A stretch of 64,000 bases of DNA from Mesostigma viride (lineage: Eukaryota > Streptophyta > Mesostigmatophyceae > Mesostigmatales > Mesostigmataceae). The stretch is taken from positions 1,700,529 through 1,764,528 of the forward strand of contig RPFO01000015.1 of assembly GCA_009746045.1 (NCBI GenBank), read 5' to 3'. A program made the translations under genes and the position numbers. Positions within the stretch are counted from its first letter, which is position 1, and each line of letters begins with the position of its first letter. The notes below the pieces were generated by a model. The model was not told the origin of the DNA. It saw only the letters and a program-made list of their open reading frames with translations, and did no database searches. This document shows positions 12,086 through 64,000 of this stretch, piece by piece.

Positions 12086-12156
12086 GGTGTCTTCAGTCGC
12101 CAATGGAACTGGATGTCTCTGGGTTCACAGTGGTCTTCTTGTTCCTCAGTAACAAA

Positions 12157-18928: not shown

Positions 18929-19014
<86 letters not shown>

Positions 19015-25526: not shown

Positions 25527-25550
25527 CTTTTTAACAGAGCGTGTAATACG

Positions 25551-26171
25551 AGTTGTGAGGGAGAGAATGCCACGAATTCCGCCATGGTTCTTGCAGGAAG
25601 TTGCCTTTATTAATAACAAGGAAACACAGACGTAAGTCACGTCACTTCCAAGACTGCACGCAGCACAGGCGACAGGGTCGCAGTGCCAAGAGAACGTGCA
25701 CGCAAGAACTAGCGTCCCGGTGTGACCAAGTCACTCATATAGGTTGTTAGGGACGCGTCCAAGTATTCAGCTGCACTGTCACAGCTGAACTGTCAATCAA
25801 TTGATTACACAGACTCTGGCACGCCTTTGGCGCGCAGATCTATCAATTGTCCATACGGCTAGTCCTGTGGACCTATCCGTACACTAGTCAGCATCAATTG
25901 TCTCATAGGTCCTGGCGCGCTACAGCACGCCTACCTATCAATTGACTATCAAGTCCTGTACAAGTCCTGTCAACGTCCTGCGGACTATCAAAGTGACACT
26001 TGTACATCCTGTGTCCGTACGCGCCCACAGTGGCGCGCCGGGTACTGTCGGCACAGCCTAGGAAACGTCATAACTTTTACGTCCCGTAACCAAATGAGGC
26101 GTTCAAGGTGCCGTACGTTGGAAAGAGCGTAACAATCTCTATCCATCTAACGTAAATCCTTTACGTTAACT
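25551..26171 (-). repeat. E3 5' LTR
   Basis: 621 bp, essentially identical to 14690-15310, ending AACT and followed by TSD GCTAA. The sequence right after the LTR on the sense strand is CGTATTACACGCTCTG, not a TGG-type primer site. Confidence 0.93.
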
Positions 26172-42852: not shown

Positions 42853-43506
42853 ATTTGCGCAGCAACTCGTCAGCAGAGCTTGTGAGCTCCTGGTCCTTGC
42901 CGGCTGGAATGACCCTAGGCTGCTGGCTAGCAACCTTTATCCTCACACCAGGCCTACGACCCTCGATAGGCTCGCCACTCGTCGTGACGACCAAGGTTCG
43001 TGTGTGAAGACGCTCATTGCCTCGTTGAGCCTCGAGCTATATGCAACCTCGTTCCATCCTTGTTCCTCGGTCATGAGCAACGCTGGGCAACGCTACATTG
43101 CCAGAGCCTCGTATCGCTGCCTTGCATCCTCGTTGCAGGCAGCATACAGGAATCTCTGGCTATCCTGTGTCTAGGACAGCACAGGACCTGCCACAGTCCT
43201 GCAAGGACTTACATCCTTGCAGACCTGCTGGCTGGTTACTGGCTTCTACTAGCCACAGTACCGTTGAGTCCTCAGTACACTGTGTCCCAGTCACGTGAGA
43301 GTCCAGGCTAAGCCTGTGCAGGCACGGCCTGCCACGTGTCCTGTCCACTATGCCCTGAGTGTGCACCGCCCTCGCCCACCGGTCGGCAGTACTTCGGGAC
43401 TTGATAACTTTCTAGTCCCTTGTCTGTTCTAGGCGGTTGACACGGCGTTGGAAAGGTCTCCTCAACCTGCATCCATCTAGCACATTGGTGCCCCAATATG
43501 CTAACT
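42853..43506 (-). repeat. E5 3' LTR
   Basis: 654 bp, ATTTGCGCAGC...ATGCTAACT in plus orientation. The sense-strand purine-rich stretch AAAACAAGAAAGGGTTGG (complement of 43507-43524) precedes it, closely like the E3 tract. Confidence 0.93.
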
Positions 43507-44441: not shown

Positions 44442-47400
44442 CTACTCTGGCCCTCCCCCCTTGGAGGCCATGAGCCCACGAAGCAAAGGGTATTGCAGCT
44501 CAGCCTTCTCCTCCAGCTTGGTGAGAGCATCTGCAGGGTTGTCCACGCCAGCCACATGTTCAATGTTAGCTAAGCAAGACATTTCCTTGAGCAACAAATA
44601 ATCAAGGTCCCTGCTCCTGGCCAGCTGCCTGTGCACAAACTGCACCATGCCCATGCTGTCAGTTCTTACCAGTGTGTGCATCTGCAACCGACAGGAAGCC
44701 ACTTGACATAGCTGGTAAAATAGCTCCCTCAAGTAAAGAGCAGTATGAAGCCCTTCACAGATTGCCCTGCACTCAGCAATGTCACTGCTGGGAGTTACCC
44801 TGTTCTGCAACCGACTGTACCAGCAGACCAGAGAGGACTGTTCCTGCACCAGGGATATTAATGCTGCTGCACGGCCCCTGACCTCTGTGACCTTCCTACT
44901 ATCCATAGAACTGTCCACATAGAGCATCATGTCAAAAGGCCTGTACAAATCCAAAGGACCCAGCATGAGAGGGGGAGACATGCGAACAGCCTCTACCACT
45001 CTCTCAGCACCCACCTCAACCAGTTGGGAATCGGTCAACCGACTCAGTACCAACAGGTCAGGAGCACAAATGCTGGCCAGCCATGCCAACATACCTCGTA
45101 TTGTTGCACATCTGGCCTGGGTGATGGGCTCCTGCAAGGCATCTATGATCTGCTGAGGATAATCCTTACCACCCTCCAGCTGGATGGACCATGTACCCTG
45201 CTGATGGACCAAGGTCGCCTGCATTCCACAAAACACCATGGGCTCATTCTCAACCATGTACTGGATCTTACCCAGTTCAAACCGTTTCTGGATCCTGGCC
45301 AGAGTCAACTCTTGCCAAGTGGGATGGCCCAGGAGATGCAGATCATCACCATGCAGGGAGGCAAACGCTGGCAGCCCCTCATAGCTACCCTGAAACAGAC
45401 AAGGATCAACTGGAGAGACTGAGAGACCACAGACAGACCTGAGGTACTTCTCCAAGCTCTTCCTCCAGATGATGGGACTCGATCTAAGGCCTTCCACGCC
45501 TTTGAGAATCCTCAAATACCTCGTCTTCAGCTCTGCCCTCCACACTGCAGGCACCTTAACAAAGAAAGGGGGTATTGTGCGCCAAGTATCCTGTGCTTCC
45601 TGCTGATCACCCTTAAGAAAAGCCCTCTTGAAATCTACCAACACAGAGCTATAGGGTATCCCCTTCTGCAGAAAAGACAAATAAATGCACAACAAAATCC
45701 TCCATGTATCATGCAGCATCCCTGGTGTGTAAAGCTCCTCATCTGCTAACTGTCCAGTGCCATGGTACTCAGTCACAACTGGTCTAACATGTGGCACCTG
45801 CACGCCATCTACCTCCTTGAGCTTGAGGACAAACATCAATCTGAGCAGCTGGTGATCCTCAGGGAGGACATCCACAGGCTCTGCACAGTTGGCAACTATC
45901 CACTCATGCCCAGAAGCAACAAAGCCAAGAGTCCATGCCTTAGCCATCTTGGGGCTTTGCATCATCTCCACTAGCTTGCGCCAAGGTACAGGACTCGTTC
46001 CTGGGATCTGGTACCTCTGCACACCCAACTCACGTGGGTCAAACGTAGTAGGGAGGATCAGCAGGTCCCCAGCAATGGGCTCCTTTGTATCAGGACCCTC
46101 TGCCTCTAGACCCCTCACAGCCCTTACAGCCACACTAAGACCCTGGGAGTAGCGATATCTCTGCAAGGGAAGGCGGCCCTGCCCTTCTAATGCTAGCTCC
46201 TCAGAGGATATCCTCACCCCTGGTAAGCACAAGAAGTTCTGACCTAGAATGGCAGGCCCCTGATACCCTTCAACCACACTGAACGTGGTGGGCACCCCCA
46301 GGATAGGCACACTCACTTCTCCCAAGATCTTCATGGACACATTCCCAGAGAAATCAGACACAGCTAGGCAGCTAGGGGATGACCACTGCAAGCCTGCAGC
46401 ATCCTCTACCCTTAGAATGGACACCTGTGAGTTGGTATCCACTTCTAGTGCTGGTGCCCCACATGACCCCCATCCCGTGAGCTTAGATACCTTGGGATCA
46501 CGCTTGCTGTTCTGCAGAGCTCGAATGATGTCCGCCATAAGCAGCCCCCTGGACTGTGGTGCAGCCCTGGCCACCTCTGGCCTTGTGACAGACGTCTCAG
46601 CAGACTCCTGCTCACCCTCATCCATCCAGGACAGACCATAATCCAAGCATGGTGGGTTAGCATCTGCTGCCTGGCTCTCATCCTGCTCATCTCCCTCCAA
46701 GGGAGGATCAGGGCCGTCTTCAGGCCAGATTGCAGTTGGCCTTCTCTCCTTGACGTGAGCCCAGGATAGCCTGTACACGTGCTTGGGATTACTCTCCAAA
46801 GCCACCAGACAAGAATGGTTAGCTTCCTCAACATGGGTTACCTGCCCATCTTGCCACTTGCCACGCTTGCCTGGTAATGACGGTTCCTTCCACATCCTGA
46901 CCCTCAGTCCCACCTGGGGCCTCAGCATTTTCCAACCCTTGTCCTTACGCCTCAATCTGGAAAACACCCTGTCTGCCTTCTTCAGGCAGGCTGCCACCAC
47001 GTCCTGTGATAGCATACCAAACTGCAATGCCAGGGGAGAGACTGCCACACCATCATAGTAATAGGTTACCCTGTGGTTAAGCTGCTCCTCAATCCCCTTA
47101 CACCAAGCTGCTTTCTCTAGAGCTGATGCCACAACAGGCACACTCCTAGCTGCTAGCACCACTGTTTTTACTTCACGTATAGATCTCTCTACAGCTCCCT
47201 GCTGCCCATGGGATTCCCTAGGGACCACTACCAACTTACAAGGAAGCTGGTCAGCCAGCTTGATCAAGCAGTCAAACTGCAAGTCAGCTTGCACCTTGGT
47301 GTACACCCCAAAGCCTGGCAACAAAGACTGGAGACCCATCAACAGCTGATGCTCCTGCATTCCAGGAAGAATGGTCAGCAACCTATATCTGCTAAACCTA

Positions 47401-48029
47401 TCCACCCCCACCAACAGATACATGCCCCTGATGTGTTGGATGTCCACCTGGATATCCCCCCGCTCTCTAGCAGGTTCTCTGGCATGGGACTGTGGGAGGC
47501 GAACAGCATTCTCCTGACAGACACAATTCTGAGCAGCTGCACTGCAGGCCTCTAGCAAAGGCTCCTTGCCAATCTTCCAAGCAAACATCTCTGCCTGCTT
47601 AGAGTGACCAAAGATATGGTGTAGAGTGTTTCCAGCCTGAGCATAGCTCAACCCCCTGTCAGCCTGGCTGCACAGAGAGGAACGTGACAAAGACTGTGTG
47701 CTTGGGATAGCACGACCCACCTGCTGTTCTCTTGCTCCAGGGACCTCCTCCAAGGTAGCTCGGCTCCCAGAGCCAGCCCCGGTTCCCACAGAAGCTGCAG
47801 GTCCTTCCAGTCTGGCGGCTTGACTCCCAGAGTCAACCCCAACAACTGGAGACCCTGCACCTGCCACAGGCACAGGGAATTCCACTGCTGCAGCAGCGTT
47901 ATTGCAATCATTGAGTGGAAGCACCTCATCATTCCCAACCCCTTGCTGCTGCACAAGAGGGACACCCCCATTACTATGTACAACTGTTCGTCCCACTAGG
48001 GGTGATTGACTATTTACAGGGGACAACAT
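44442..48029 (-). CDS. pol: E5 pol polyprotein (integrase, protease, RT, RNase H), intact
   Basis: 1195 codons from an ATG 6 nt after the gag TGA, in the same frame. Residues 1-130: Ser/Gly/Gln-rich linker. About 130-175: HHIFGH...CVC, candidate zinc domain. Integrase triad D196 (VDIQHIRGMY), D249 (QADLQFD), E281 (GQQGAVERSI), then the C-terminal GKRGKWQDGQVTHVEE. Protease-like D531 in ALEVDTNSQVSIL with GPAILGQNFL. RT D799 (VLVDFKRAFLKGD) and D895-D896 (SLHGDDLHLL). RNase H D1039 (YVDSSMDSRK), E1086 (DIAECRAICE), D1124 (VRTDSMGMVQ), ending NPADALTK. RT and RNase H resemble copia, yet the protease lies after integrase. This is the best reference copy for the group in the window. Confidence 0.9.
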   Translation of the reverse strand: MLSPVNSQSPLVGRTVVHSNGGVPLVQQQGVGNDEVLPLNDCNNAAAAVEFPVPVAGAGSPVVGVDSGSQAARLEGPAASVGTGAGSGSRATLEEVPGAREQQVGRAIPSTQSLSRSSLCSQADRGLSYAQAGNTLHHIFGHSKQAEMFAWKIGKEPLLEACSAAAQNCVCQENAVRLPQSHAREPARERGDIQVDIQHIRGMYLLVGVDRFSRYRLLTILPGMQEHQLLMGLQSLLPGFGVYTKVQADLQFDCLIKLADQLPCKLVVVPRESHGQQGAVERSIREVKTVVLAARSVPVVASALEKAAWCKGIEEQLNHRVTYYYDGVAVSPLALQFGMLSQDVVAACLKKADRVFSRLRRKDKGWKMLRPQVGLRVRMWKEPSLPGKRGKWQDGQVTHVEEANHSCLVALESNPKHVYRLSWAHVKERRPTAIWPEDGPDPPLEGDEQDESQAADANPPCLDYGLSWMDEGEQESAETSVTRPEVARAAPQSRGLLMADIIRALQNSKRDPKVSKLTGWGSCGAPALEVDTNSQVSILRVEDAAGLQWSSPSCLAVSDFSGNVSMKILGEVSVPILGVPTTFSVVEGYQGPAILGQNFLCLPGVRISSEELALEGQGRLPLQRYRYSQGLSVAVRAVRGLEAEGPDTKEPIAGDLLILPTTFDPRELGVQRYQIPGTSPVPWRKLVEMMQSPKMAKAWTLGFVASGHEWIVANCAEPVDVLPEDHQLLRLMFVLKLKEVDGVQVPHVRPVVTEYHGTGQLADEELYTPGMLHDTWRILLCIYLSFLQKGIPYSSVLVDFKRAFLKGDQQEAQDTWRTIPPFFVKVPAVWRAELKTRYLRILKGVEGLRSSPIIWRKSLEKYLRSVCGLSVSPVDPCLFQGSYEGLPAFASLHGDDLHLLGHPTWQELTLARIQKRFELGKIQYMVENEPMVFCGMQATLVHQQGTWSIQLEGGKDYPQQIIDALQEPITQARCATIRGMLAWLASICAPDLLVLSRLTDSQLVEVGAERVVEAVRMSPPLMLGPLDLYRPFDMMLYVDSSMDSRKVTEVRGRAAALISLVQEQSSLVCWYSRLQNRVTPSSDIAECRAICEGLHTALYLRELFYQLCQVASCRLQMHTLVRTDSMGMVQFVHRQLARSRDLDYLLLKEMSCLANIEHVAGVDNPADALTKLEEKAELQYPLLRGLMASKGGGPE

Positions 48030-48035
48030 CTCAAG

Positions 48036-49381
48036 TCATGGCTTACCCACCTGGCCAGAGCCTGCTCCAGCAGACTTGGCCTGGTCTGGGCAGTCACGTC
48101 GCCAATGACCCGTCCTGCCACATCCAAAGCATTTGTCATCCTTCCCAGCAGCAGCCTTCTTCAGGCCACCCTGGTTCTGGCTGCTCTGACTGGCCTGGGT
48201 GCCCTGGCCCTGGCTCTTGCCTTGCCCTTGGCCACCCTTGTTCTGCTGACCACCCTGGTGACCACCAGCCTGCTGCTGACCCTTGCCTTTGGATCCCTGC
48301 TGCTGGCCCTTGCCACCCTGGTTACCATTCTGCCTGCGCCTGTTAGCCCTCTGACGCCTACTAGGTCTGGTTTCTCCCTGAGCACCCTGCCCAGGGGCGT
48401 CACCATGGACCTGATGAGCGGAGGCTGAAGGGGCACCAGTCACCTGGATTGCCTTGCAAGCAGCATTGTCAGATGGACGGATATTGAAAATAACCTTTTG
48501 CAAGGCTGGCCACGTCCCATCTGTCTGATCAGCAAACATCCTAGCTGCATTTCTCCCATCCACACTCAGCCCCATGCGATCCAGGAAGTAATCTGCCACT
48601 GCTCTATCAGTCAGATTGAAGCCATGCTTGGCCCCCTTCTCCCTGATGCGTGTGAGCCGCTGCAGCTCCTCAGCTATTGTGCCCTTGATCTCAAAGGTAT
48701 CATAGCTGAGCTTATAGTGATTAGTGAGGTTGAGTACCTTATCAGAAAACTCCTGACGTAGGCCCTCTAGGAACTGAGACCAAGTCAGCTTGTCCTTGAC
48801 AGCCTGCCTAGCCTTGTCCCTCACCCTCTCACTTGAATCCCTATTAGTCGTGGATGTGTGGAATACCTGCACAAGGTTGACAGTGGGATCTACAGAGCAT
48901 GAAACTAGCTCCATATCCTCCAACCACTTGTCTAGCTCTTCCTGTCCCACAGGAGGCTTGAGAGGCTTCTGGCCATTCATCACAGCCACAGCACTCATAT
49001 GAGGTCTAGTCCCAGGCAAAGCACGAGGGTCACTGCCAATGACAGCAGCTCCTACGGTGCTAATGGCGCAGGAACATAGCTGCAGGAACACCAGACGGAG
49101 GCACACATGGTCTCTTACCAGGTGCTTGCCGTTCAGCATCATTCTGGCCCTCCCCCGTCAGCACCACGCCGTCGGTTGGCCACCCTGCACGCTCCTCCCC
49201 TTGTGCCACCTCTTTCCTCTTCCGGTTGGACGCCCTCCTGCCATTGACGCCCTCTGCCGTTGGGATTGCCTGTCCCTCTGGCACGACGTTGGCGGGGCTC
49301 CCGTGTCTGCCCTTGCCTCACCCCCGCCATCCCCCGCTCCCGCCCCGCTCCCGCTGCCGCCCCGCGCGTGTTACGAAGCAT
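48036..49381 (-). pseudogene. gag: E5 gag with CCHC knuckle, two N-terminal frameshifts
   Basis: The start is the ATG at 49381 (MLRNTRG), by comparison with the better preserved E7 gag (51903). Frame changes near 49285 and in 49060-49140 disrupt the N-terminal 110 codons. From VGAAVIGSDPRALPGT onward it is intact: helical gag (LDKWLEDMELVSCSVDP, LTRIREKGAKHGFNLTDRA), a Gln/Gly/Lys-rich basic linker and zinc knuckle CFGCGRTGHWRRDC. It ends KP TGA CTT GAG ATG, with pol in the same frame. Confidence 0.82.
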
Positions 49382-50591: not shown

Positions 50592-51245
50592 ATTTGCGCA
50601 GCAACTCGTCAGCAGAGCTTGTGAGCTCCTGGTCCTTGCCGGCTGGAATGACCCTAGGCTGCTGGCTAGCAACCTTTATCCTCACACCAGGCCTACGACC
50701 CTCGATAGGCTCGCCACTCGTCGTGACGACCAAGGTTCGTGTGTGAAGACGCTCGTTGCCTCGTTGAGCCTCGAGCTATATGCAACCTCGTTCCATCCTT
50801 GTTCCTCGGTCATGAGCAACGCTGGGCAACGCTACATTGCCAGAGCCTCGTATCGCTGCCTTGCATCCTCGTTGCAGGCATCATACAGGAATCTCTGGCT
50901 ATCCTGTGTCTAGGACAGCACAGGACCTGCCACAGTCCTGCAAGGACTTACATCCTTGCAGACCTGCTGGCTGGTTACTGGCTTCTACTAGCCACAGTAC
51001 CGTTGAGTCCTCAGTACACTGTGTCCCAGTCACGTGAGAGTCCAGGCTAAGCCTGTGCAGGCACGGCCTGCCACGTGTCCTGTCCACTATGCCCTGAGTG
51101 TGCACCGCCCTCGCCCACCGGTCGGCAGTACTTCGGGACTTGATATCTTTCTCGTCCCTTGTCTGTTCTAGGCGGTTGACACGGCGTTGGAAAGGTCTCC
51201 TCAACCTGCATCCATCTAGCACATTGGTGCCCCAATATGCTAACT
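50592..51245 (-). repeat. E5 5' LTR
   Basis: 654 bp, matching 42853-43506. The sense sequence directly after it is CGTACTATTGCTTCC, lacking a TGG-type primer site but sharing YGTAYT with E3 and E6. Confidence 0.93.
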
Positions 51246-51432: not shown

Positions 51433-51895
51433 CAAACACTCGGCCTTGGCTGTGCTCTGATTAAGTAATTATTGTATAAATGAAATACCTGTTCTGATCA
51501 TGCACATGTTGTCTCCTTGATGTTGTCTCCTTGATAAACCATGTGCCCATGGCCGTGGCTGTCTTGGTGACTCGCATCATTCACGGGTTGTTCAGCTGCC
51601 AAAGTTGCCCTATTAATAAATAAATTAATTAAACTCGTGCTCCCGTTGGGGAGTCACGGAGCACTCCTAGACTAGCCCCTAGACTGCACAAACCCAACCA
51701 ACCAAGTAGCCAAGGCATAGGAGCCCGACCACCCAAGCCAAGGCCGCTGTCCCATCTCCCCAAATCAACGTACAGGGAGAATGAGGATTGTATAGTAGGG
51801 GACGCAGTTACGCGTCTATATGAATTAATTAATAGTAGTGGACTTGAATAAAGTCTCGAATAGTAGGGGCTTGGCCCCTACCGGGTCTACTTGTA
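51433..51895. other. Unassigned segment with candidate LINE 3' end
   Basis: Mostly featureless. At 51609-51660 the minus strand carries the hairpin GTGCTCC...GGGAGCAC followed by an AT-rich TTAA/TTTA tail, the same structure as at 13296-13345. Similarity to the E5 gag leader begins abruptly near 51896 (TTTATAATGCTTCGTAACAC). Confidence 0.5.
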
Positions 51896-51902
51896 TTTTA
51901 TA

Positions 51903-53259
51903 ATGCTTCGTAACACGCGCGGGAGCGGCAGCGGGAGCGGGGCGGGGGATGGCGGTGGTGAGGCAAGGGCGGATACGGGAGGTCCCGCCAGCGTCGTGCC
52001 AGAGGGACAGGCAATCCCAACGGCAGAGGGCGCCAATGGCATGAGGGCATCCATCCGGAAGAGAAAGGAGGTGGCACAAGGGGAGGAGCGTGCGGGATGG
52101 CCAACCGACGGCGTGGTGCTGACGGGGGTGGGCCAGGAGGATGCTGAACGTCAAGGCCCGGGTAAGAGACCATGTGTGCCTGATTCTGGTGTCACTCCAC
52201 CTGCAGCTAGTGCTCCGGGGCCTTTAGCACCGGTAGGAGCTCCTGTCATTGGCAGTGACCCTCGTGCTTTGCCTGGGACTAGAGCTCACATGAGTGATGT
52301 GGCTGTGATGAATGGCCAGAAGCCTCTAAAGCCTCCTGTGGGACAGGAAGAGCTAGACAAGTGGTTGGAGGATATGGAGCTAGTTTCTTGCTCTGTAGAT
52401 CCCACTGTCAACCTTGTGCAGGTATTCCGCACATCCACGACTAATAGGGATTCCGGTGAGCGTGTGAGGGACAAGGCTAGACAAGCTGTCAAGGACAAGC
52501 TGACCTGGTCTCAGTTCCTAGAGGGCCTAATATGTCAGGAGTTCTCTGATAAGGTACTCAACCTCACTAATCACTATAAGCTCAGCTATGATACCTTTGA
52601 GATCAAGGGCACAATAGCTGAGGAGCTGCAGCGGCTCACACGCATCAGGGAGAAGGGGGCCAAGCATGGCTTCAATCTGACTGACAGAGCAGTGGCAGAT
52701 TACTTCCTGGATCGCATGGGGCTGAGTGTGGATGGGAGAAATGCAGCCAGAATGTTTGCTGATCAGACAGATGGGACATGGACAGCCTTGCAAAGGGCTA
52801 TTTTTAATATCCGTCCATCTGACAATGCTGCTTGCAAGGCAATCCAGGTGACTGGTGCCTCTTCAGCCTCCGCTCATCAGGTCCATGGTGATGCCCCTGG
52901 GCAGGGTGCTCAGGCAGATCCCAGGCCTAGTAGGCGTCAGAGGGCTAACAGGCGCAGGCAGAATGGCAAACAGGGTGGCAAGGGCCAGCAGCAGGGATCC
53001 AAAGGCAAGGGTCAGCAGCAGGCTGGGGGTCACCAGGGTGGTCAGCAGAACAAGGGTGGCCAAGGGCAAGGCAAGAGCCAGGGCCAGGGCACCCAGGCCA
53101 GTCAGAGCAGCCAGAACCATGCAGTGTGGCCTGAAGAAGGCTGCTCCTGGGAAGGATGACAAGTGCTTTGGCTGTGGCAGGAAAGGTCATTGGCGACGTG
53201 ACTGCCCAGACCAGGCCAAGTCTGCTGGAGCAGGCTCTGGCCAGGTGGGTAAGCCATGA
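51903..53259 (+). pseudogene. gag: E7 gag, one frameshift before the zinc knuckle
   Basis: Starts MLRNTRGSGSG and preserves the N-terminal region broken in E5 (VPEGQAIPTAEGANGMR, RKRKEVAQGEERAGWPTDG). The helical gag domain is intact. A frameshift at about 53115-53130 moves the knuckle CFGCGRKGHWRRDC into the frame ending at TGA 53257-53259. The stop context is CCA TGA CTT GAT ATG, as in E5. Confidence 0.82.
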
Positions 53260-53859
53260 CTTGATATGTTGTCCCCTGTAAATAGTCAATCACCCCTAGT
53301 GGGACAGACATCAGTTGTACATAGTAATGGGGGTGTCCCTCTTGTGCAGCAGCAAGGGGTTGGGAATGATGAGGTGCTTCCACTCAATGATTGCAATAAC
53401 GCTCCTGCAGCAGTGGAATTCCCTGTGCCTGTGGCAGGTGCAGGGTCTCCAGATGTTGGGGTTGGCTCTGGGAGTCAAGCCGCCAGATTGGAAGGACCTG
53501 CAGCTTCTGTGGGAACCGGGGCTGGCTCTGGGAGCCGAGCTTCCTTGGAGGAGGTCCCTGGAGCTAGAGAACAGCAGGTGGGTCGTGCTATCCCAAGCAC
53601 ACAGTCTTTGTCACGTTCCTCTCTGTGCAGCCAGGCTGACAGGGGGTTGAGCTATGCTCAGGCTGGAAACACTCTACACCATATCTTTGGCCATTCTAAA
53701 CATGCAGAGATGTTTGCTTGGAAGATTGGCAAGGAGCCTTTGCTAGAGGCCTGCAGTGCAGCTGTTCAGAATTGTGTCTGTCAGGAGAATGTTATTCGCC
53801 TCCCACAGTCCCATGCCAGAGAACCTGCTAGAGAGCGGGGGGATATCCAGGTGGACATC
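53260..53859 (+). pseudogene. pol: E7 pol part 1 (linker and zinc-like region), cut by E6
   Basis: In frame with the knuckle after the gag TGA. Corresponds to E5 pol residues 1 to about 196 and ends inside the first integrase motif (GDIQVDI), where E6 inserted with TSD ACATC. Confidence 0.85.
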
Positions 53860-54289
53860 AGTTGAATGCCCTTCACCGCTGGCTAGCACGCCGGCGATGG
53901 AGACGGGATTTTTTGTTGTTTGGGGAACCGATTGTGGGAGGCTGAGCCCGCAGCCGCCACTGATTGCTATTGAACCCTTGCAGCTGGCCAGGCCGCAAGG
54001 AGCTCAGCGGCGCGGCGCTAACCGATAAGGCATGCTCGAGCCTCTAACCCGAGACTACCGGTAGGCTACCCGATAGTGCATGCTCGAGCCTCTAACCCGA
54101 GACTACCGGCACTCAGCGGATCTGTGCTACCGAGGGCGACGGTTCTCTGACCGTCCCGGCGCGCACTGGCTTCCGTACCTTGCTTAGGCACCGACTAGCA
54201 TCTAGACACCAATCTTTGATGCCCACCTGACTAGGCGCCCAGGCCGGCGACTACCGGCCAGCGGATAGATGCCACTCGGGAGCACAACT
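53860..54289 (-). repeat. E6 3' LTR
   Basis: 430 bp with a 5-bp terminal inverted repeat AGTTG/CAACT. Contains a tandem duplication of CATGCTCGAGCCTCTAACCCGAGACTACCG (about 54031-54110). The sense strand before it has AAAAAGAAAGTATGGG as a purine-rich tract. Confidence 0.92.
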
Positions 54290-54626
54290 CCCATACTTTC
54301 TTTTTAAATAATTATCATAAATTATTTAAAGCGAGGGGCAATAGGGTAGCACTGACCCTACGTACGTTCAAGTAGAGAAACACGTAACGGCACACTGGCC
54401 GTCCCCAAATCCTAAACCCCAAGGAGGGTGCCCTACGCTGGGATCTGAGCACGCCAAAAACACCCGGGCTTTGCTCCCGGCCTCCTTTTCTACTTGGGTG
54501 CAACTGCACCACATGCATCATTATTAGGCACACTGGCCGCCTGTCAGGTCTAGGGAAATGTATTCACAGATGAAAGAAGCGCCCATTCCCATGCAAAAAG
54601 ACGACAGGTCACACGGTAAAAAAAAC
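54290..54626 (-). other. E6 3' untranslated region
   Basis: Non-coding, about 340 bp, including an AT-rich inverted stretch (AATAATTATCATAAATTATTT, about 54307-54327) close to the LTR. Confidence 0.6.
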
Positions 54627-57600
54627 TCATGTCATCATGAGCTGCCGCAGCAGCTTGTACTGAGGCCCCGACAGCATCGCTGGCTTGGTCAAGGCATCGG
54701 CAATATTCTCGCTCTCGGGGATCCACCGCCGCTCATCCAACACCGTGGCGGACTCGGCCAACACAAGGTAATCTAGTTTGGTGGTGGAGGCGAGCGGGTT
54801 ATTCAGAAACTCAATTATTGACTTGCTATCTGTGCACAGCCGCATGCGGAGCGACAGCGCCACGCGGGCCTTATCCGCAATCCATTGCAAAAGATGCTGC
54901 ACATAACACGCATGGTCGACAGCGGAAATGAACGCGCGACACTCCGCGCGATTGCTGTCTACCACTACCCGCTGATGGATGCGGCTATACCAGTCGACAA
55001 TAGTGGGCTGCCCAGTGGGGCTATCAAGAAAAAAGATGGCCGCCTCCCGCGCGCGCAGCTGCGTGATGGTACGCGACTCCAGGTTCGCGTCAGAGTAAAT
55101 GGTCATTGCCACCGGGCGGGTGATATCAACCCCCCACACGCGCAGGCCCGGTGACGCCAAGACTTGCGTCCGAAGATGCTGCGCTCCCATGCCCGCAAGC
55201 ACGGCGTCGGGCGCACGCGCGTAGATGGACAGGTCGGGTCGCACCGTGCCCGCGAGCCACCCCAGCTGGCCGCGCAAGTGCGGTCCCGCGGACGCATCCA
55301 GCCGCTCAGGCAGCGATTGCGCGAGCTTGTCGGCGTATTCCTGCTTGGCCGCCATGTCAATGCACCAGCCAACCGGTGTGCGGTGCAAAGTGTAGGTTAG
55401 GCCACAGAAAGGGACGGGGGTGTCGGGGTCCAGCCACAACGTGCGGCTAGTGGGCAAAAGCTTGGCCACAGCGGTTATGAACTGCCGGACCCACGCCCGG
55501 GGTCCAATAAGCCGCCAGTCATCCCCATGCCATTGCATGAACGCGGGCTCGTGTGGGTTGGGTGTGTGGATGTGAAAGAGGTTGCTATCGATGCGGGAAA
55601 ACACCGCCCCCATGCTAGCAAAGATGCGTTCAGCCGTCTTGCGAAAGATGATGGGGCTAGACTGCAGGCCCTCCACACCAAGGAGAAGCCGCAAGTACAC
55701 ACACCGCAGCTCCCCCTGCCACACCAAAGGGACCTTGACCACATACACCGTGCCACGCCACACTTCCTCGGCCACTGCCGGGTCGCTATGGAGAAAGGCC
55801 CGCTGAAAATCTGAGCAGGCCATGGCATAGTCCAACCCCCGATCCAACAGCCCCAAGAACACCGATGTTAACACCCGGCTAGTGGTCTGCGACAGCCCGG
55901 GCGTAAACAATTCCTCCTCCGACAACTCAGACGAGCCCCTAAACTCCGTGACACAGGGCCGTACATGAAATGTGACAGGGTCAGTGGGGAGGACCTGCTT
56001 ATACTTGAGCACAAACTTCAAGTTCAGCTTTACCGCCCCTTGCGGCACCTCCATCAACTCCCCATACACCCCATACATCGCCCACTCCAGCTGCGCGCGC
56101 AAGAAAGCCGCGCGCCACTTATGGAACTTGACAGGGTCACGGCAGTCCTCCTTAAACTGCGGATAACTAACAGGAGATTTAGTGGCGATGCTCCAGGGAA
56201 AAATGCCAAGACTGCTGGGGTGACACTTCTGCGGCTGCGTGACATCGGCTACCAGCGGCTCTGCCGTATATTCCGCCCCGCGAATGGCCCCTACTGCAGT
56301 GGCATAATCCTCAGGGTGATTAATAGCCTCGGGGGGACCCCGGCCCGTGAGGGCTGCAAGCGCTACGTGATATTGGTACAAGCCTATGCTCCCCACCCCC
56401 TCGAGGGTCACCAAGCCGGCTGACACAGAAAACCCGGGGAGGGAAACAAAAGGGTTACCTATGAGGGTGATCCCCTTGTAACCCTCTAGCACTTGCACAG
56501 GGACATCTACCCCTAGGATGGGCATGAGCACCTGCCCAGCCACCTTATAGGCCCGCTGCCCGTCAAACCCCGCAACTCCTTCCAACTACTGGGCAGCAAA
56601 GGGTAATAGGCCTCGGCCGCCGCCGGGCTCGTGATAGACACGCCTGCCATGGTATCTATGGCCGCAATATGCCTAGAGGGAACATCATGAGCTTCAGTCA
56701 CAACCGTGGGGCACTTATCTGGCATGACGCGGCTGACTTGTGCCGCACCCCCCGCTGCCGCCGCCTTGAGCTTGTCCGCCTTGAGCAGCTGTCGGAGGAC
56801 GTGGGCCAGCTGGGAGCCCACGCCCGCGCCTGACGATGTGTCCGGCGCCGCCACGGTGGGCGCTGCTGGGGTCGCGGGGAGGGGCTGAGGTAGCGCCCCC
56901 GCGTCGACCCCGGGGACTTGCTCCGGCGCGGCGCCTGCAGGGGGGTGGGCAACAAGCGCATCATGCACAGCCACCCCAAGTGGGGTGGGTAGGACAGGTT
57001 CCAGCCGGGCCCGCTTGGCCGGCCGGCTATCCACATCCCAACCGAGCTGGCGGCTGTGCTCCTTGGCCGCCTGGACCTGGGCATCGGACGCCTTGTACCG
57101 ATACACCTTATCCCACGGGATGAGATAGTCCCTATGCTCCCAGTGCACCTTCACCCGCCTATGCACCCAGTCCAAATCCACCACCATGCCTGGCCCTTGC
57201 ATCTGCCCCCGCTTGCCAAAGGAATTCTCCTTGTGAAACAAGACCAACTCCCCCAGCTCCCACTCCTGCGACAAGTCAGGCTGGGTGCGGTCTAACTGCC
57301 GCCTAACCTCAGCGGTGGTAGCGAGGTGGGCCTCCCAATGGTCTGCCACGTCCGGAGGGTAAATGCCCGACTGCAGCCCCCGCGCGGTAATAAGACCTAG
57401 TCCCTGGGGCAGCTTGAAAAGCACCTGGCTGTTGTACTTGTCCATGAGCAAGCGGCACCACAGCGCGCGTTGTGCATAAGGCTGCCCCGCGGGCTTGAAT
57501 CCTAACCCGCTGGCCTGCTGCTTGGCTGCCATGCCCTTTACGCTGCTGATGTGCCTATCAATCAGCCCCAAGTTGCCATGGTCCTGCCGCCCAGCAATAA

Positions 57601-58375
57601 CCACCATCTCACAGCCCTCCCGCCCCACAATGCAATCAAATTGTTGGTCCAACATGACCTCAGAAATGGGAAAGAAGTGAGACATGGCAATGCGCAGCCC
57701 CCGCCACAAGGACTCCTCTACCATGCTTGGCAGGGGCTCGATGGCTAGGAACTTGGTATAGCGATCCATCAAGACCAAATAATAGTCCCCCTCCTCCAAA
57801 TGCATGACATCCCCCACTAACCTCCCCCGGTACGGGGAAGGAGTCTTAGCATGCCAGCGCCTACGCTTCTTCCTGACACTTGCGCATGCGTGGCACTCCT
57901 CTAACTCCGCCTGAGCGACCTTCAACCCCGGCGCCCCCATAAGCCGAGTCGCCCAGTCTAGCGTTTGCCCCGCCACATGACCCACCGCAAGGTGAATCTG
58001 GTGAGCAAGCATCCGCAATCCTATGGCCGTGGGGGTGGTGCCATCCCCTTCTATGCTAGGCACCTGCCCCGCCAAGCTCTCTGCATGTGCATTCCTGTCG
58101 GCAATGTGCTCTAGTGAGGCCTTACTGAGGCGGCGACCCAACTCCACGTCTACGTGAGGGGCTACCTCGGCATCTGCCGGCACTATCTCACCTGAAGGGG
58201 TGAGCTCCGGAAGGGCGTGTTCAGGCTCTATTGCGACCACGCTGGGCACGCACTCCTGATCAGCTGCAGCACTTGCACTTCCATTCTGAACCACTGACGT
58301 GGGAACATTAGGACTACAAGGCACAGCATCCTCACGCCTAGCCGACTCACCGCGACACACATCACCTCTATGACG
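54627..58375 (-). pseudogene. pol: E6 pol (integrase, protease, RT, RNase H), one frameshift in protease
   Basis: Continues in frame after the gag TGA (TGA CGT CAT AGA). First frame to about 56575: His/Cys region, integrase with GDVMHLEEGDYYLVLMDRY, MLDQQFD and DHGNLGLIDRHISSVK (Asp where Glu is expected), C-terminal GKRGQMQGPG, then IAAIDTMAGVSITS, the protease active-site region. A frame change near 56575 leads to GFDGQRAYKVAGQVLMPILG and ITLIGNPFV, RT (CSDFQRAFLHSD, QWHGDDWRL), and RNase H (YSDANLESR, DWYSRIHQRVVVDSNRAECR, LCTDSKSIIEFLNNP, NIADALTK). Length if joined is about 1249 residues. Inactive unless the frame change is an error or recoding. Confidence 0.85.
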
Positions 58376-59581
58376 TCACTTGGGCATGGCTGGCCGTGGG
58401 GCGCGGCATGTGTTGGGGTCGTGTCCAGGAAGCCGAACCGCCCAGCAGCGCCGGCACACTCGAGTCGCCTTGCCGAGGTCCAGCCGCAGCGTGCAGTTGT
58501 CCTCGGTGTGCCCCACGCCGGTGCACCGCTCGCAGACGACCTTCTCCTTGGGGACACCACCCTGCTGCTGTTGCTGCCTGCCAGTGCCGCCCTCCTGGCG
58601 AGGCTGCTTGCCCTGACCGCCTCCCGGCCCGCGTTTGCTGGACGCGTTCTGGTTGTGCCGACCACCGCGAGCTCGGCGTTTGCCACCCAACATTCGCACC
58701 ACGTTGTCGGCCACCGTCGTGGACAGCTGGGTAACAAGAGTGGTCAAGTCCGACAGAGAAGCTGCTGGCGGGGTCGAGGCAGGCACAGGGTTTACCTGAG
58801 CAACTGTCGGCAGCTTGTTGTTACGCCTGGGGCCGCCCCGGTCCTTGAACATCTCTCGGAGGTGCGCCATGGCTGCGTTGAACCGTTTCTGGTCGTCCGG
58901 GGTGCCCACTACCACGGAAGAAGCTAGCGCAATTTTCATGCCGAGACCGGCCTTGACATTGGCACGGCTCTCTGGCGTCAGCCCCAGCGCATCCAGAACT
59001 GCGCTGAGTAAATATTCGCTACTCATGTGCTTCAAGACACCCTTGCTCCGGACCTGGGCCGCGAATCTGGCCATGTCCGAGCTGAGGTAATTGGGGTCAA
59101 GCGACAGGTTGCGCACCAGCGCCTGCCCCTCCTTTTCCTCGTCAGGAAAGCTTGAGGTGTCGAGCACCTCTTGCAGGGCCTTCACTGTGTCGGGCCAGGT
59201 CCACGCCTCTTTGCTGGCGTTGATAATGACCCCTCGCACGTCCGCATTACCCGTAGCCTCGTTGCATACCTCTGACCGGCGCAGCTTGGTGAGGAAAACT
59301 GCGTCGGACAGTTCGTTGTAGTCCTGCCGGAGCTCGCCCAGGCTGTTAATAAACTCCTCCACGGCGGACGGCGTCAGAATTTCTGGCAGCTTACTTGGCA
59401 GCTCTTCTTTCTTGAAAACTTTCCGGGCAGTTGGTGCTGACTGCTGCCCCGGAGCTGTGCTGACCGAGCCACCAGCTGGCTCAGTCGCCACGGTGGCTGC
59501 GCCACTCCCATCCGCCGGAGTTGATGCTTGCGTTCCCTGGTCCTGGGTTGCAGCTGGCGTTCGCTCCGCGCCACGCGCCAT
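58376..59581 (-). CDS. gag: E6 gag with two zinc fingers, intact
   Basis: 401 codons from the ATG at 59581 (MARGAERTPAATQ). Ala/Thr/Pro-rich N terminus, helical capsid-like region (LRQDYNELSDAVFLTKLRRS, PDTVKALQEVLDTSSFPDEE, EYLLSAVLDALGLTPESR), basic Gly/Gln linker, then CERCTGVGHTEDNC (CCHC) and a second finger CRRCWAVRLPGHDPNTC with longer spacing. It ends MPK TGA CGT. E4 gag has the same two-finger arrangement. Binds genomic RNA and forms particles in known retroelements. Confidence 0.85.
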   Translation of the reverse strand: MARGAERTPAATQDQGTQASTPADGSGAATVATEPAGGSVSTAPGQQSAPTARKVFKKEELPSKLPEILTPSAVEEFINSLGELRQDYNELSDAVFLTKLRRSEVCNEATGNADVRGVIINASKEAWTWPDTVKALQEVLDTSSFPDEEKEGQALVRNLSLDPNYLSSDMARFAAQVRSKGVLKHMSSEYLLSAVLDALGLTPESRANVKAGLGMKIALASSVVVGTPDDQKRFNAAMAHLREMFKDRGGPRRNNKLPTVAQVNPVPASTPPAASLSDLTTLVTQLSTTVADNVVRMLGGKRRARGGRHNQNASSKRGPGGGQGKQPRQEGGTGRQQQQQGGVPKEKVVCERCTGVGHTEDNCTLRLDLGKATRVCRRCWAVRLPGHDPNTCRAPRPAMPK

Positions 59582-59627
59582 GAGCCCAGAAAAATGGTCA
59601 ACGGTAATGTTGACTGTTGTGAATACA

Positions 59628-60056
59628 AGTTGAATGCCCTTCACCGCTGGCTAGCACGCCGGCGATGGAGACGGGATTTTTGTTGTTTGGGGAACCGATT
59701 GTGGGAGGCTGAGCCCGCAGCCGCCACTGATTGCTATTGAACCCTTGCAGCTGGCCAGGCCGCAAGGAGCTCAGCGGCGCGGCGCTAACCGATAAGGCAT
59801 GCTCGAGCCTCTAACCCGAGACTACCGCTAGGCTACCCGATAGTGCATGCTCGAGCCTCTAACCCGAGACTACCGGCACTCAGCGGATCTGTGCTACCGA
59901 GGGCGACGGTTCTCTGACCGTCCCGGCGCGCACTGGCTTCCGTACCTTGCTTAGCCACCGACTAGCATCTAGACACCAATCTTTGATGCCCACCTGACTA
60001 GGCGCCCAGGCCGGCGACTACCGGCCAGCGGATAGATGCCACTCGGGAGCACAACT
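59628..60056 (-). repeat. E6 5' LTR
   Basis: 429 bp, partner of 53860-54289. The sense sequence directly after it is TGTATTCACAACAGTC, not a TGG-type primer site. Confidence 0.92.
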
Positions 60057-60061
60057 ACATC

Positions 60062-60429
60062 CAGCATATCAGGGGCATGTATCTGTTGGTGGGGATGGAT
60101 AGGTTTAGCAGATATAGGTTGCTGACCATTCTACCTGGAATGCAGGAGCATCAGCTGTTGATGGGTCTCCAGTCTTTGTTGCCAGGCTTTGGGGTGTACA
60201 CCAAGGTGCAAGCTGACTTGCAGTTTGACTGCTTGATCAAGCTGGCTGACCAGCTTCCTTGTAAGTTGGTAGTGCACTACCATGGTCCCTAGGGAATGCC
60301 ATGGGCAGCAGGGAGCTGTAGAGAGATCTATACGTGAAGTAAAAACAGTGGTGCTAGCAGCTAGGAGTGTGCCTGTTGTGGCATCAGCTCTAGAGAGAGC
60401 AGCTTGGTGTAAGGGGATTGAGGAGCAGC
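60062..60429 (+). pseudogene. pol: E7 pol part 2 (integrase core)
   Basis: Continues the E7 integrase after E6: QHIRGMYLLVGMDRFSRY, KVQADLQFD. A 9-bp insertion creating GTAGTGCACTAC at about 60271-60282 breaks the frame, after which the GAVERSI region follows in another frame. Ends at the TTAA where the MITE inserted. Confidence 0.85.
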
Positions 60430-60433
60430 TTAA

Positions 60434-61779
60434 CCCATAGTCCGGGAATGGGTTTTTGGCATTTTTTGACCCCTGAAAATGAAAAAAATCATAACTCATA
60501 GACCACAACTCCAAATACCCCCAACCAAGGTGCTAGGAATATCTACACTTCAAGGGCTTTCAGAATATGCAATAATATCATGAGTTTATAAAGTGGTTTG
60601 CAAGATATTTAATGTCAAAGTTGGCCAAAAGACGATCATTTTCGGGCAAGGGAAATCCCCTTAGTAGTTTACCCCTGCAGGGAGGGTTCTAAAAAATTAT
60701 TCTGGGGTTGGACAATGTCAATAGATAGTGCCACCATGCTTTCCTTGGGTCAGACCGCACGGATAGCCCATCTGACCTATATAATCCGCTCACTTACGTG
60801 TGTGGGTTACGCGCGCGTAAGCAGCCATCCATGAAATGCCACACAGTTATGCATTGTATACAGCCACATAGGACTGTCAAAAGTGCTGGGAAACAAAGAA
60901 GTGCTTAACCAGCACTAACGGAATGGCATCCTCCAAAGAAACACCACAAACTGAGCAGATTTGGGGCTAATAGCACTCATACAGCAGGCATGGAAACCTG
61001 CTGCAAGAGGCACTGATGGCACTCGTGTAAAATCGATGCATAAACGACAGATTCCCGTGCAAACGACATGCAAACACGTCGCCGTACCTGGCTTGATCAC
61101 GACCTTTCCGGGTTCTGCTGGCCGGGACCCTCATATCTCACACTGGCTAATGCTTTCCAGGCATGGGCCGCCATAGCCGCATAGTGAATGCATCCGACAT
61201 GATTACCAGGTTGATGTTCTGTGCAGAGATGACCTATAAACGCATCCGAATTCACAGGGACGCTGCTGCGGATGTCCCGTACCAAAACTGGGTGCTCGGG
61301 CTGGCGCAGACTGCCGGGCCATAAGAAGAAAATCGAAATATGGCATGCCATTACTCATCTGGTACTGACGACCAAGAAAGCAGTAATTTCCTACCTGTAT
61401 TTTACCAATGCCATCCCATCTGGCCACCCCTGACCTACGAAAATCACGCATCATCATTCTGAGCAACATTCTGAACCATTGCAAGCCTCGAGACGCAAAA
61501 TTTCCTTGATAACGGCACGCTAGCAGCCATATCTCGTTACGCGCGCGCGCGAGTGAAAATTTCCCGCCAAAGTCACGTGATACTGTCTCAATACACGTTG
61601 TATTTACCAGGCTATGGCGAATATTACCCCCAAACCTATGCATCACCTTCGTCCTTAAGTGTTCCCAGACCCACCGGACCACTGACATCCGTCACAGGTG
61701 GCGCGGCGCTCCGGGAATTGAGCGCCGCGCCACCGGGGGTCAAACAGTTCGATATATCGAACTGTTTCCGGACTATGGG
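60434..61779. mobile_element. piggyBac-like MITE with TTAA target duplication
   Basis: A 1346-bp insertion bounded by inverted repeats CCCATAGTCCGG (60434-60445) and CCGGACTATGGG (61768-61779) and flanked by TTAA on both sides (60430-60433, 61780-61783). Removing it with one TTAA restores the E7 pol sequence matching E5 (GAG CAG CTT AAC CAC AGG). TTAA duplication and CCC-starting termini are hallmarks of the piggyBac superfamily. No transposase-like frame is present, so it is non-autonomous. Interior palindromes include AGTTCGATATATCGAACT (61746-61763). Confidence 0.85.
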
Positions 61780-61783
61780 TTAA

Positions 61784-64000
61784 CCACAGGGTAACCTATT
61801 ACTATGATGGTGTGGCAGTCTCTCCCCTGGCACTGCAGTTTGGTATGCTATCACAGGACGTGGTGGCAGCCTGCCTGAAGAAGGCAGACAGGGTGTTCTC
61901 CAGGTTGAGGAGAAAGGACAAGGGCTGGAAAATACTGAGGCCCCAGGTGGGACTGAGGGTCAGGATGTGGAAGGAACCGTCATTACCAGGCAAGCGTGGC
62001 AAGTGGCAAGATGGGCTGGTAACCCATGTGGAAGAGGCTAACCATTCTTGTCTGGTGGCTTTGGAGAGTAATCCCAAGCACGTGTACAGGCTATCCTGGG
62101 CTCACGTCAAGGAGAGAAGGCCAACTGCAATCTGGCCTGAAGACGGCCCTGATCCTCCCTTGGAGGGAGATGAGCAGGATGAGAGCCAGGCAGTAGATGC
62201 TAACCCGCCATGCTTGGATTATGGTCTGTCCTGGATGGATGAGGGTGAGCAGGAGTCTGCTGAGACGTCTGTCACAAGGCCAGACACACAGTCCAGGGGG
62301 CTGCTTCTGGCGGACATCATTCGAGCTCTGCAGAACAGCAAGCGTGATCCCAAGGTATCTAAACTCACGGGATGGGGGTCATGTGGGGCACCAGCACTAG
62401 AGTCTAGAGGTGGATACCATCTCACAGGTGTCCATTCTAAGGGTAGAGGATGCTGCAGGCTTGCAGTGGTCATCCCCTAGCTGCCTAGCTGTGTCTGATT
62501 TCTCTGGGAATGTGTCCATGAAGATCTTGGGAGAAGTGAGTGTGCCTATCCTGGGGGTGCCCACCACTTTCAGTGTGGTCGAAGGGTATCAGGGGCCTGC
62601 CATTCTAGGTCAGAACTTCTTGTGCTTGCCAGGGGTAAGGATATCCTCTGAGGAACTAGCATTAGAGGGGCAGGGCCGCCTTCCCTTGCAGAGAAATCGC
62701 TACTCCCAGGGTCTCTAGTGTGGCTGTAAGGGCTGTGAGGGGTCAAGAGGCAGAGGGCCCTGATACAAAGGAGCCCATTGCTGGGGACCTGCTGATCCTC
62801 CCTACTACGTTTGACCCACGTGAGTTGGGTGTGCAGAGGTACCAGATCCCAGGAACGAGTCCTGTACCTTGGCGCAAGCTAGTGGAGATGATGCAAAGCC
62901 CCAAGATGGCTAAGGCATGGACTCTTGGCTTTGTTGCTTCTGGGCATGAGTGGATAGTTGCCAACTGTGCAGAGCCTGTGGATGTCCTCCCGGAGGATCA
63001 CCAGCTGCTCAGGTTGATGTTTGTCCTCAAGCTCAAGGAGGTGGATGGCGTGCAGGTGCCACATGTTAGACCAGTTGTGACTGAGTACCATGGCACTGGA
63101 CAGTTAGCAGATGAGGAGCTTTACACACCAGGGATGCTGCATGATACATGGAGGATTTTGTTACAAGTGCATTTACTTGTCTTTTCTGAACAAGGGGATA
63201 CCCTATAGCTCAGACTGTGTTGGTAGATTTCAAGAGGGCTTTTGACCAGCAGGAAGCACAGGATACTTGGCGCACAATACCCCCTTTCTTTGTTAAGGTG
63301 CCTGCAGTGCGGAGGGCAGAGCTGAAGACGAGGTATCTGATGATTCTCAAAGGGGTGGAAGGCCTTAGATCGAGTCCCATCATCTGGAGGAAGAGCTTGG
63401 AGAAGTACCTCAGGTCTGTCTGTGGTCTCTCAGTCTCTCCAGTTGATCCTTGTTTGTTTCAGGGTAGCTATGATGGGCTGCCAGCGTTTGCCTCCCTGCA
63501 TGGCGATGATCTGCATCTCCTGGGCCCTCCCACTGGGCAAGAGTTGACTCTGGCCAGGATCCAGAAACGGTTTGAACTGGGTATTAAAGATCCAGTACAT
63601 GGTTGAGAATGAGCCCATGGTGGTTTGTGGAATGCAGGCAACCTTGGTCCATCAGCAGGGTACATGGTCCATCAAGCTGGAGGGTGGTAAGGATTATCCC
63701 CAGCAGATCATAGATGCCTTGCAGGAGCCCATCACCCAGGCCAGATGTGCAACAATACGAGGTATGTTGGCATGGCTGGCCAGCATTTGTGCTCCTGACC
63801 TGTTGGTACTGAGTCGGTTGACCGATTCCCAACTGGTTGAGGTGGGTGCTGAGAGAGTGGTAGAGGCTGTTCGCATGTCTCCCCCTCTCATGCTGGGTCC
63901 TTTGGATTTGTACAGGCCTTTTGACATGGTGCTCTATGTGGACAGTTCTATGGATAGTAGGAAGGTCACAGAGGTCAGGGGCCGTGCAGCAGCATTAATA
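61784..64000 (+). pseudogene. pol: E7 pol part 3 (integrase C terminus, protease, RT, RNase H start)
   Basis: Follows E5 pol closely: GKRGKWQDGLVTHVEE, the protease-like region around VSILRVEDAAGL, GPAILGQNFL, RT to SLHGDDLHLL, then RNase H YVDSSMDSRKVTEV at the window end. Frames are broken at about 62402 (GTCTAGAG insertion beside the protease Asp), 62705, 63165, 63245 (about 12-bp loss plus shift in the RT FKRAF region) and 63583. Clearly non-functional. Confidence 0.87.

What the first reader, a model, noticed from the sequence alone, without database searches (positions are those of the whole stretch)
44442..48029. Retroelement group with integrase before protease (gag-IN-PR-RT-RH)
In E5 (intact) a DDE integrase (D196, D249, E281) is followed by a retropepsin-like segment (ALEVDTNSQVS at about 531, GPAILGQNFL downstream), then RT and RNase H. 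The same order is read in E3 (20453-23535), E4 (33958-38479), E6 (54627-58375) and E7. No protease-like segment lies between the gag knuckle and integrase. Copia elements have PR before IN; gypsy elements have IN last. The RT and RNase H resemble copia. This looks like a domain shuffle fixed in a lineage. The DDE and protease motifs are seen directly; the lineage claim is inference.
Basis: partly seen in the sequence, partly recalled or inferred. Interest (0 to 1): 0.88.

Follow-up and report, generated by a model that had tools for sequence, protein, structure and literature searches.

The report
Retrotransposons with protease after integrase
In what is most likely the alga Mesostigma viride, a large and young group of LTR retrotransposons carries a protease-like domain between integrase and reverse transcriptase instead of in front of integrase, an order not found in the known retrotransposon groups compared here.

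Summary
E5 has a 1197-codon pol frame reading HHCC/DDE integrase, retropepsin-like segment, copia-type RT, RNase H. Four families in the window (E3, E4, E5/E7, E6; RT 36-56% identical) share the order. Elsewhere in the genome, 7 further E5 copies and one E6-family copy that I read show it in one open frame; in the E4 family protease-RT-RNase H sits in the -1 frame relative to integrase.

E3, E5 and E6 also share 5-bp target duplications, AGTT-type LTR ends, a non-TGG primer site and TGA-C between gag and pol. All four families have RT box HGDD and a protease motif DTx without the usual glycine. Canonical copias of the same genome have protease before integrase under the same scans.

Main weakness: the protease fold. 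The region is under purifying selection (Ka/Ks 0.08, small counts). Its second motif is gypsy/retrovirus-like, which favours capture of a foreign protease over a simple permutation. My searches found no printed description. New variant of a known kind.

The parts
44442..48035 (-). E5 pol, one open frame of 1197 codons: integrase, protease-like, RT, RNase H
   Evidence: same frame in 7 further genomic loci
46734..47621 (-). E5 integrase: HHCC finger, D198, D251, E283, SH3-like C-terminal part
   Evidence: profile of the four families best matches integrase chain 3f9k, E 0.0041 whole sequence, 0.3 for the best stretch alone; rve 0.037-0.16, below cut-off
46116..46535 (-). E5 retropepsin-like domain (VDTNSQVSI ... 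ILGQNFL) between integrase and RT
   Evidence: weak matches, all retropepsins; Ka/Ks 0.08 against E7
45036..46043 (-). E5 reverse transcriptase, box HGDD
   Evidence: RVT_2 0.0022 in E5, 4.8e-6 in E3; alignment
44469..45035 (-). E5 RNase H (D, AECRA, TDS, ADALTK)
   Evidence: by motif in the alignments; no PDB match to the profile
48036..49157 (-). E5 gag frame with CCHC knuckle, ending in TGA followed in the same frame by pol (TGA C)
   Evidence: zf-CCHC 2e-5; junction
50592..51245 (-). E5 5' LTR, AGTT...AAAT, outside it TSD GGGTT
   Evidence: 99.4% to the 3' LTR, ends
42853..43506 (-). E5 3' LTR with TSD GGGTT
14690..26171 (-). E3: LTRs 14690-15310 and 25551-26171, gag 23536-24564, pol 20446-23535, insertion, RNase H tail 16285-16797; TSD GCTAA
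33913..38479 (+). E4: gag and integrase in two frames, protease-RT-RNase H frame 36086-38479 overlapping the integrase frame in -1 relation
   Evidence: copies
53860..60056 (-). E6: LTRs 53860-54289 and 59628-60056, gag 58376-59650 ending in TGA C, pol 54627-58375 with one frame break inside the protease; nested in E7, TSD ACATC
51893..64000 (+). E7: second, broken copy of the E5 family (51893-53859, 60057-60435, 61779-64000), split by E6 and by a further interruption
2185..13002 (-). Control E2: canonical copia (LTRs 2185-3014 and 12169-13002, TGTT...AACA, PBS TGGTATC, TSD GTGCC) with protease after the knuckle
   Evidence: Pol_BBD 3.3e-14, LLSVGQL, ends; its RT was not found in the window

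Best explanation
E3, E4, E5/E7 and E6 are members of one divergent, copia-related lineage of autonomous LTR retrotransposons whose pol runs integrase, retropepsin-like protease, RT, RNase H. Gag is read first; in E3, E5/E7 and E6 a small share of ribosomes pass the UGA-C stop into pol (inferred). The E4 family needs a further -1 frame change between integrase and protease (inferred). The protease-like domain would dimerise in the particle and cut the polyprotein; RT copies the RNA; integrase inserts the cDNA with a 5-bp target duplication (the duplications are shown in E3, E5, E6). The domain most likely came from a gypsy/retroviral-type or cellular retropepsin placed between integrase and RT, with loss of the old copia protease in front of integrase (inferred).
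For: One open frame with this order in E5, in 8 of 8 E5-family loci read, one of which is the window copy, and in the one E6-family copy read, 1249 codons, HHCC 128-161, D189, D243, D273, protease 574-640, HGDD 950, ADALTK 1226. 27 of 39 scored E5-family matches (9,930 candidates) have no internal stop; 13 of 73 E6-family matches have the 1249-codon frame; 57 of 57 scored E4 matches (8,349 candidates) have the 797-codon protease-RT-RNase H frame. Protease region: all 3 PDB matches at E <= 10 of 177,635 sequences are retroviral proteases (E 0.33-0.94), 3 of 3 for P0016, 5 of 5 with the four-family profile (E 0.32-2.7); in register in the 3 and 2 alignments shown. gag-asp_proteas E 0.11 over profile 11-90 of 92 for P0016. 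Ka/Ks 0.08, 2 nonsynonymous changes at 314 sites against 8 synonymous at 106, Fisher p 0.0004; linker and spacer show no constraint, p 0.5. Same-genome copias give Pol_BBD, pre-integrase, rve, SH3, RVT_2 in that order in 3 of 4 frames scanned; the fourth, L014, is cut at the locus edge. LTR pairs with exact 5-bp duplications in E3, E5, E6.
Against: No match in the protease region reaches a curated threshold; P0017, P0018 and P0019 alone give no protease match in Pfam and P0019 none in PDB. The PDB stretches matched cover the flap-to-second-motif half and not the D-T motif. The glycine after D-T is N, Q, M or (E7) I in every copy read, which should harm a standard retropepsin (recalled). A profile comparison with four canonical copia proteases is negative. 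Four isolated D[ST]G matches lie upstream of integrase. No RNA structure beyond chance follows the TGA in 3 of 3 junctions. RT and RNase H profiles find nothing in PDB. Ka/Ks rests on ten changes in one pair of copies; RNase H could not be judged (60 codons).
Confidence: 0.7

Rival explanations
1. The domain is a retropepsin relative that has lost catalysis and is kept as a structural or dimerising barrel; processing is done by a host protease or not at all.
For: The D-T-G glycine is replaced by N, Q, M or I in all families; PDB matches cover the second half, not the active-site half.
Against: D and T are invariant in all five rows and the region has the lowest Ka/Ks of the pol parts measured (small counts). 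Canonical copias of the same genome also lack this glycine (DSAAS in L039, L040, E2), so its loss alone is not proof of death.
Confidence: 0.22
2. The segment is not a retropepsin; the DT...ILGxxFL resemblance is chance and the element has no protease.
For: Only sub-threshold profile matches; no structure prediction possible.
Against: Near-fixed spacing of the two motifs (65-66), invariant D-T...V-S and G, and every PDB match being a retroviral protease.
Confidence: 0.1
3. The order arose by moving the original copia protease behind integrase rather than by capturing another one.
For: RT is copia-like and integrase precedes RT, so an ancestor with a copia protease is likely.
Against: The second motif is [IL][IL]Gx[NP]F[LV], as in gypsy and retroviral proteases (recalled, and seen for HIV protease), not the LLSVGQL type of canonical copias; the only protease matches are gag-asp_proteas and retroviral proteases, never Pol_BBD.
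Confidence: 0.25
4. An assembly or nesting artefact put a foreign protease piece inside pol.
For: The window is full of nested insertions.
Against: Single open frames repeated in many separate places of the genome, four families sharing the order, and EukProt proteins carrying pieces of it.
Confidence: 0.02

Closest known systems
Ty1/copia elements (Pseudoviridae)
   Same: Integrase before RT and RNase H; RT with D..AFL and G..SP boxes as in RVT_2 (alignment); ADALTK end; 5-bp target duplications as in control E2; gag-UGA-pol is known in Tca2 (PMC2194720, abstract and section list seen).
   Different: Protease-like domain follows integrase instead of preceding it; its second motif is not copia-like; RT only 20-24% identical to same-genome copias; HGDD; LTR ends AGTT instead of TG...CA; primer site without TGG.
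Ty3/gypsy Gmr1 lineage
   Same: A known case of integrase at an unusual place for its superfamily (passage of PMC2774666 seen).
   Different: Gmr1 is gypsy; that its protease is still in front of integrase is recalled, not seen in a call. Here the RT is copia-type and the protease is behind integrase.
Retroviral and gypsy retropepsins, gag-asp_proteas (PF13975)
   Same: D-T-x-[AS]-like and [IL][IL]Gx[NP]F[LV] motifs at retropepsin spacing; the only protease families matched.
   Different: Glycine of D-T-G missing in every copy read; position after integrase; matches below threshold.

Membership tests
Pseudoviridae / Ty1-copia | RT of RVT_2 type | tested here: inconclusive
   RVT_2 4.8e-6 (E3), 0.0022 (E5), none for E4 and E6; 3e-7 for P0011, 2.3e-4 for P0008, none for P0010, all below the curated cut-off 31.6 bits; no RVT_1 listed at E <= 10
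Pseudoviridae / Ty1-copia | Pol order protease, integrase, RT-RNase H (order in which PMC8515867 lists them, whole text read) | tested here: not met
   Protease-like domain lies after integrase in all four families; 3 of 3 uncut control copias of the same genome meet the feature
Pseudoviridae / Ty1-copia | Primer site usually complementary to initiator tRNA-Met | tested here: not met
   E3 CGTATTAC, E5 CGTACTAT, E6 TGTATTCA after the 5' LTR; control E2 has TGGTATC. Reading TGGTATC as initiator-Met is recalled; half-tRNA priming was not tested
Pseudoviridae / Ty1-copia | LTRs, polypurine tract, short target duplication | tested here: met
   E3, E5, E6: LTR pairs, purine-rich stretch before the 3' LTR, 5-bp duplications; no LTRs found for E4 and E7
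Metaviridae / Ty3-gypsy | RVT_1-type RT, integrase after RNase H (Gmr1 excepted) | tested here: not met
   No RVT_1 match at E <= 10; integrase precedes RT
Retropepsin (A2) family | D-[ST]-G active-site residues | tested here: not met
   DTN, DTQ, DTM, DTI in the copies read
Retropepsin (A2) family | Retropepsin fold | not testable with these tools
   Structure prediction switched off; sequence matches only suggestive
Retroviral-type DDE integrase | HHCC finger and D, D, E core | tested here: met
   Complete in E3 and E5; E4 and E6 have D in place of the last E; best PDB match is integrase 3f9k, E 0.0041; the other 8 of 9 matches (E 1.2 and above) are unrelated

The most novel reading that the evidence does not exclude
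A superfamily-level lineage of LTR retrotransposons in streptophyte algae, sister to or outside known copia, that discarded the copia protease and runs on a captured gypsy- or cell-type retropepsin set between integrase and RT, with altered active sites in three enzymes (protease DTx, RT HGDD, integrase DDD in two families), its own LTR ends and its own priming site, and that has amplified very recently.
Probability: 0.42. Interest if true: 0.85.

Novelty: new variant of a known kind. Interest (0 to 1): 0.74.

Why it matters
The places of integrase and protease in pol are a main character for dividing LTR retroelements. A mobile, multi-family lineage with protease behind integrase shows that pol tolerates this order and that the protease can be replaced. 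It makes testable whether a retropepsin without the D-T-G glycine cleaves, and how cleavage is timed when protease is made after integrase, in the E4 family only after a frame change.

Tried and rejected
Rejected: a protease upstream of integrase (four isolated D[ST]G matches, none with a second motif); an RNA structure behind the TGA (z -0.24, 0.36, -0.65); common ORF0 in E3 and E5 (E 2.0). Led nowhere: single-sequence protein search with E5 pol (none); viral and bacterial contig collections (no relatives); PDB search with pol, RT or RNase H (chance matches or none); NCBIfam (one chance match); profile comparison with copia proteases; LTRs of E4 (none). Not done for want of answers: gypsy outgroup from the same genome (PF00078 asked) and genomic copies of the E3 family.

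Rows dropped: the front half of the window E6 protease (P0020, P0022) was left out of A7 because it misaligned; E7 was left out of A1 and A8. The control tree uses L014, L039, L040, L043; one search examined 13 of the 47 loci then held, of which L009 gave no frame of 500 codons, L016 and L038 look like L014, and L041, L042, L044-L047 share motif strings with L039, L040 or L043 and were not used. In the tree 3 of 5 inner branches are open and E3 differs in make-up.
Full report
What is there. E5 lies on the minus strand between LTRs 42853-43506 and 50592-51245 (99.4% identical). Its pol is a single open frame of 1197 codons. The same layout is found in E3 (46% identical pol; RNase H tail cut off by an insertion), in E4 and E6 (about 35% to E5 in the protease-RT-RNase H part, 46% to each other), and in E7, a broken second copy of the E5 family split by E6. 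So four families, not copies of one element, share the order.

Host. The window is most likely Mesostigma viride: a Mesvir1 gene model in EukProt (P0014) is identical to E5 up to codon about 515 and then continues with another frame of E5's own 3' end (compared by eye). The genome held is 439.9 Mb in 2243 contigs. Proteins labelled Prorocentrum lima (100% to E5) and Lingulodinium polyedra (77%) also turned up; cross-contamination is my guess for the first, not tested.

Other copies. Of 39 scored E5-family matches (9,930 candidates) 27 have no internal stop; 8 of 8 loci read, including the window copy, have integrase, protease motif and HGDD in one frame and TGA CTT in front. Of 73 E6-family matches 13 have a frame of 1249 codons; the one I read, L058, has HHCC 128-161, D189, D243, D273, DTMAGVSI 574, LIGNPFV 638, HGDD 950, AECRA 1144, ADALTK 1226, and TGA CGT in front. 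The break in the window's E6 is therefore not general. Of 57 scored E4-family matches (8,349 candidates) all 57 are listed as 100% identical 797-codon protease-RT-RNase H frames. In 10 of 10 E4 loci read, this frame overlaps the integrase frame by 106 bases in -1 relation; in 7 of 10 the integrase frame holds both the first and second D. The first frame change of the window copy, inside integrase, is thus not general; the second, between integrase and protease, is. These ten are 99.6-99.9% identical, so they are one recent burst, not ten independent witnesses. The overlap holds C CCC CCT and G GGC CCC in the phase needed for -1 slippage (phase worked out by me).

Is the extra domain a protease? 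By motif: D-T...V-S, then G, V, P-x-L-G, V, G-Y, G, F are invariant across four families, with [IL][IL]Gx[NP]F[VL] at 65-66 residues. By profile: all 3 PDB matches (of 177,635 sequences, E <= 10) of the A7 profile are retroviral proteases, E 0.33-0.94 (the listing says protease or tethered dimer, HIV-1 is recalled); with a full E6-family row 5 of 5, best 0.32, two of them named HIV-1; P0016 alone 3 of 3, P0019 alone none. The matched stretch is the second half of the domain, not the D-T motif. Pfam gives gag-asp_proteas E 0.11 for 1 of 6 members, there including the D-T motif. None is significant alone. By selection: E5 against E7 over 140 codons, 8 synonymous and 2 nonsynonymous changes, Ka/Ks 0.08, p 0.0004; integrase 0.20, RT 0.23; linker and spacer together 4 synonymous and 8 nonsynonymous, p 0.5; RNase H too short to judge. 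The residue after D-T is N, Q, M or I, never G, in the copies read, so activity is open.

Which kind of protease? Canonical copia proteases of this genome carry LLSVGQL, LLSAGQL, LLSVAQL or LLSVSQL and match Pol_BBD (E 3.3e-14 for E2; 4.1e-15, 5.7e-13, 2.1e-9 for L039, L040, L043). The E5-type domain has neither; its second motif and its protease matches are gypsy/retrovirus-like. A profile comparison of the two gave nothing. Capture is thus favoured over permutation, without proof.

Which kind of RT and integrase? RVT_2 matches E3 (4.8e-6), E5 (0.0022), P0011 (3e-7) and P0008 (2.3e-4), none above the curated cut-off; E4, E6 and P0010 do not match; no RVT_1. RT identity is 36-56% inside the lineage, 20-24% to four canonical copias of the genome, which are 55-75% among themselves. 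A tree of these 8 rows separates the two sets with 100/100 on a very long branch; it has no outgroup, so sister-to-copia and inside-copia cannot be told apart. The box is HGDD where the genome's copias have HVDD, so H is shared and G is new. Integrase best matches chain 3f9k, listed as integrase (E 0.0041; best stretch alone 0.3); E4 and E6 have D for the last E.

Element ends. E3, E5 and E6 have exact 5-bp duplications (GCTAA, GGGTT, ACATC). E3 and E6 LTRs run AGTT...AACT, E5 AGTT...AAAT; the sequence after the 5' LTR is CGTATTAC, CGTACTAT, TGTATTCA. Control E2 has TGTT...AACA, TGGTATC and GTGCC. Gag and pol are in one frame separated by TGA C in E3, E5, E6, E7; E4 has no stop there. A UGA at this place is known from Tca2, where flanking sequence alone did not direct readthrough in yeast (PMC2194720, abstract).

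Known or not. The ICTV profile of Pseudoviridae lists protease, integrase, RT-RH (PMC8515867, whole text). Passages of PMC2774666 name Gmr1 as gypsy with a copia-like integrase place; passages of PMC12440569 and PMC3587641 gave no case of protease behind integrase. Searches listed nothing that I recognised as describing this order, and 43 and 86 returned no paper; most papers were seen only as listings, and Repbase was not searchable. Passages of the Mesostigma genome paper mention repeats without this (PMC7027972).

Verdict. The order is real and belongs to a young, multi-family lineage (about 0.93 for integrase, protease-like, RT, RNase H). That the domain is an active retropepsin is probable, about 0.7 with the mechanism above.

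Noticed in passing
36086-36194 and L048-L057: In the E4 family the integrase and protease-RT-RNase H frames overlap by about 106 bases in -1 relation in 10 of 10 loci, with two slippery-like heptamers in phase: possible programmed frameshift.
   Followed up: partly
G000 contigs C30, C667, C1456, C1469, C1593, C2028: Six 93% identical E5 relatives have equal scores and one internal TGA each, as if amplified with it.
   Followed up: no
26278-28619: A tandem duplication (99.7%) of a frame with a Cys-rich cluster and a PD..D-type stretch ([23 protein letters not shown]), possibly the endonuclease of a non-LTR retrotransposon; Pfam finds nothing relevant.
   Followed up: partly
3101-9340: E1, an LTR element nested in E2, has gag with a CCHC knuckle but no long pol frame in the ORF listings: probably non-autonomous.
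   Followed up: partly
24819-25730 and 49592-50775: E3 and E5 have extra coding frames (ORF0; two overlapping frames in E5) between the 5' LTR and gag; the two are not detectably alike.
   Followed up: partly
L039, L040, L043, E2 10424-12124: Canonical copias of this genome have HVDD in RT, and some have DSAAS instead of D-S-G in the protease.
   Followed up: no
P0009, P0016: Proteins labelled Prorocentrum lima (100% to E5) and Lingulodinium polyedra (77%): contamination or transfer between alga and dinoflagellates.
   Followed up: no
32116-33270: A stack of direct and inverted repeats next to E4.
   Followed up: no
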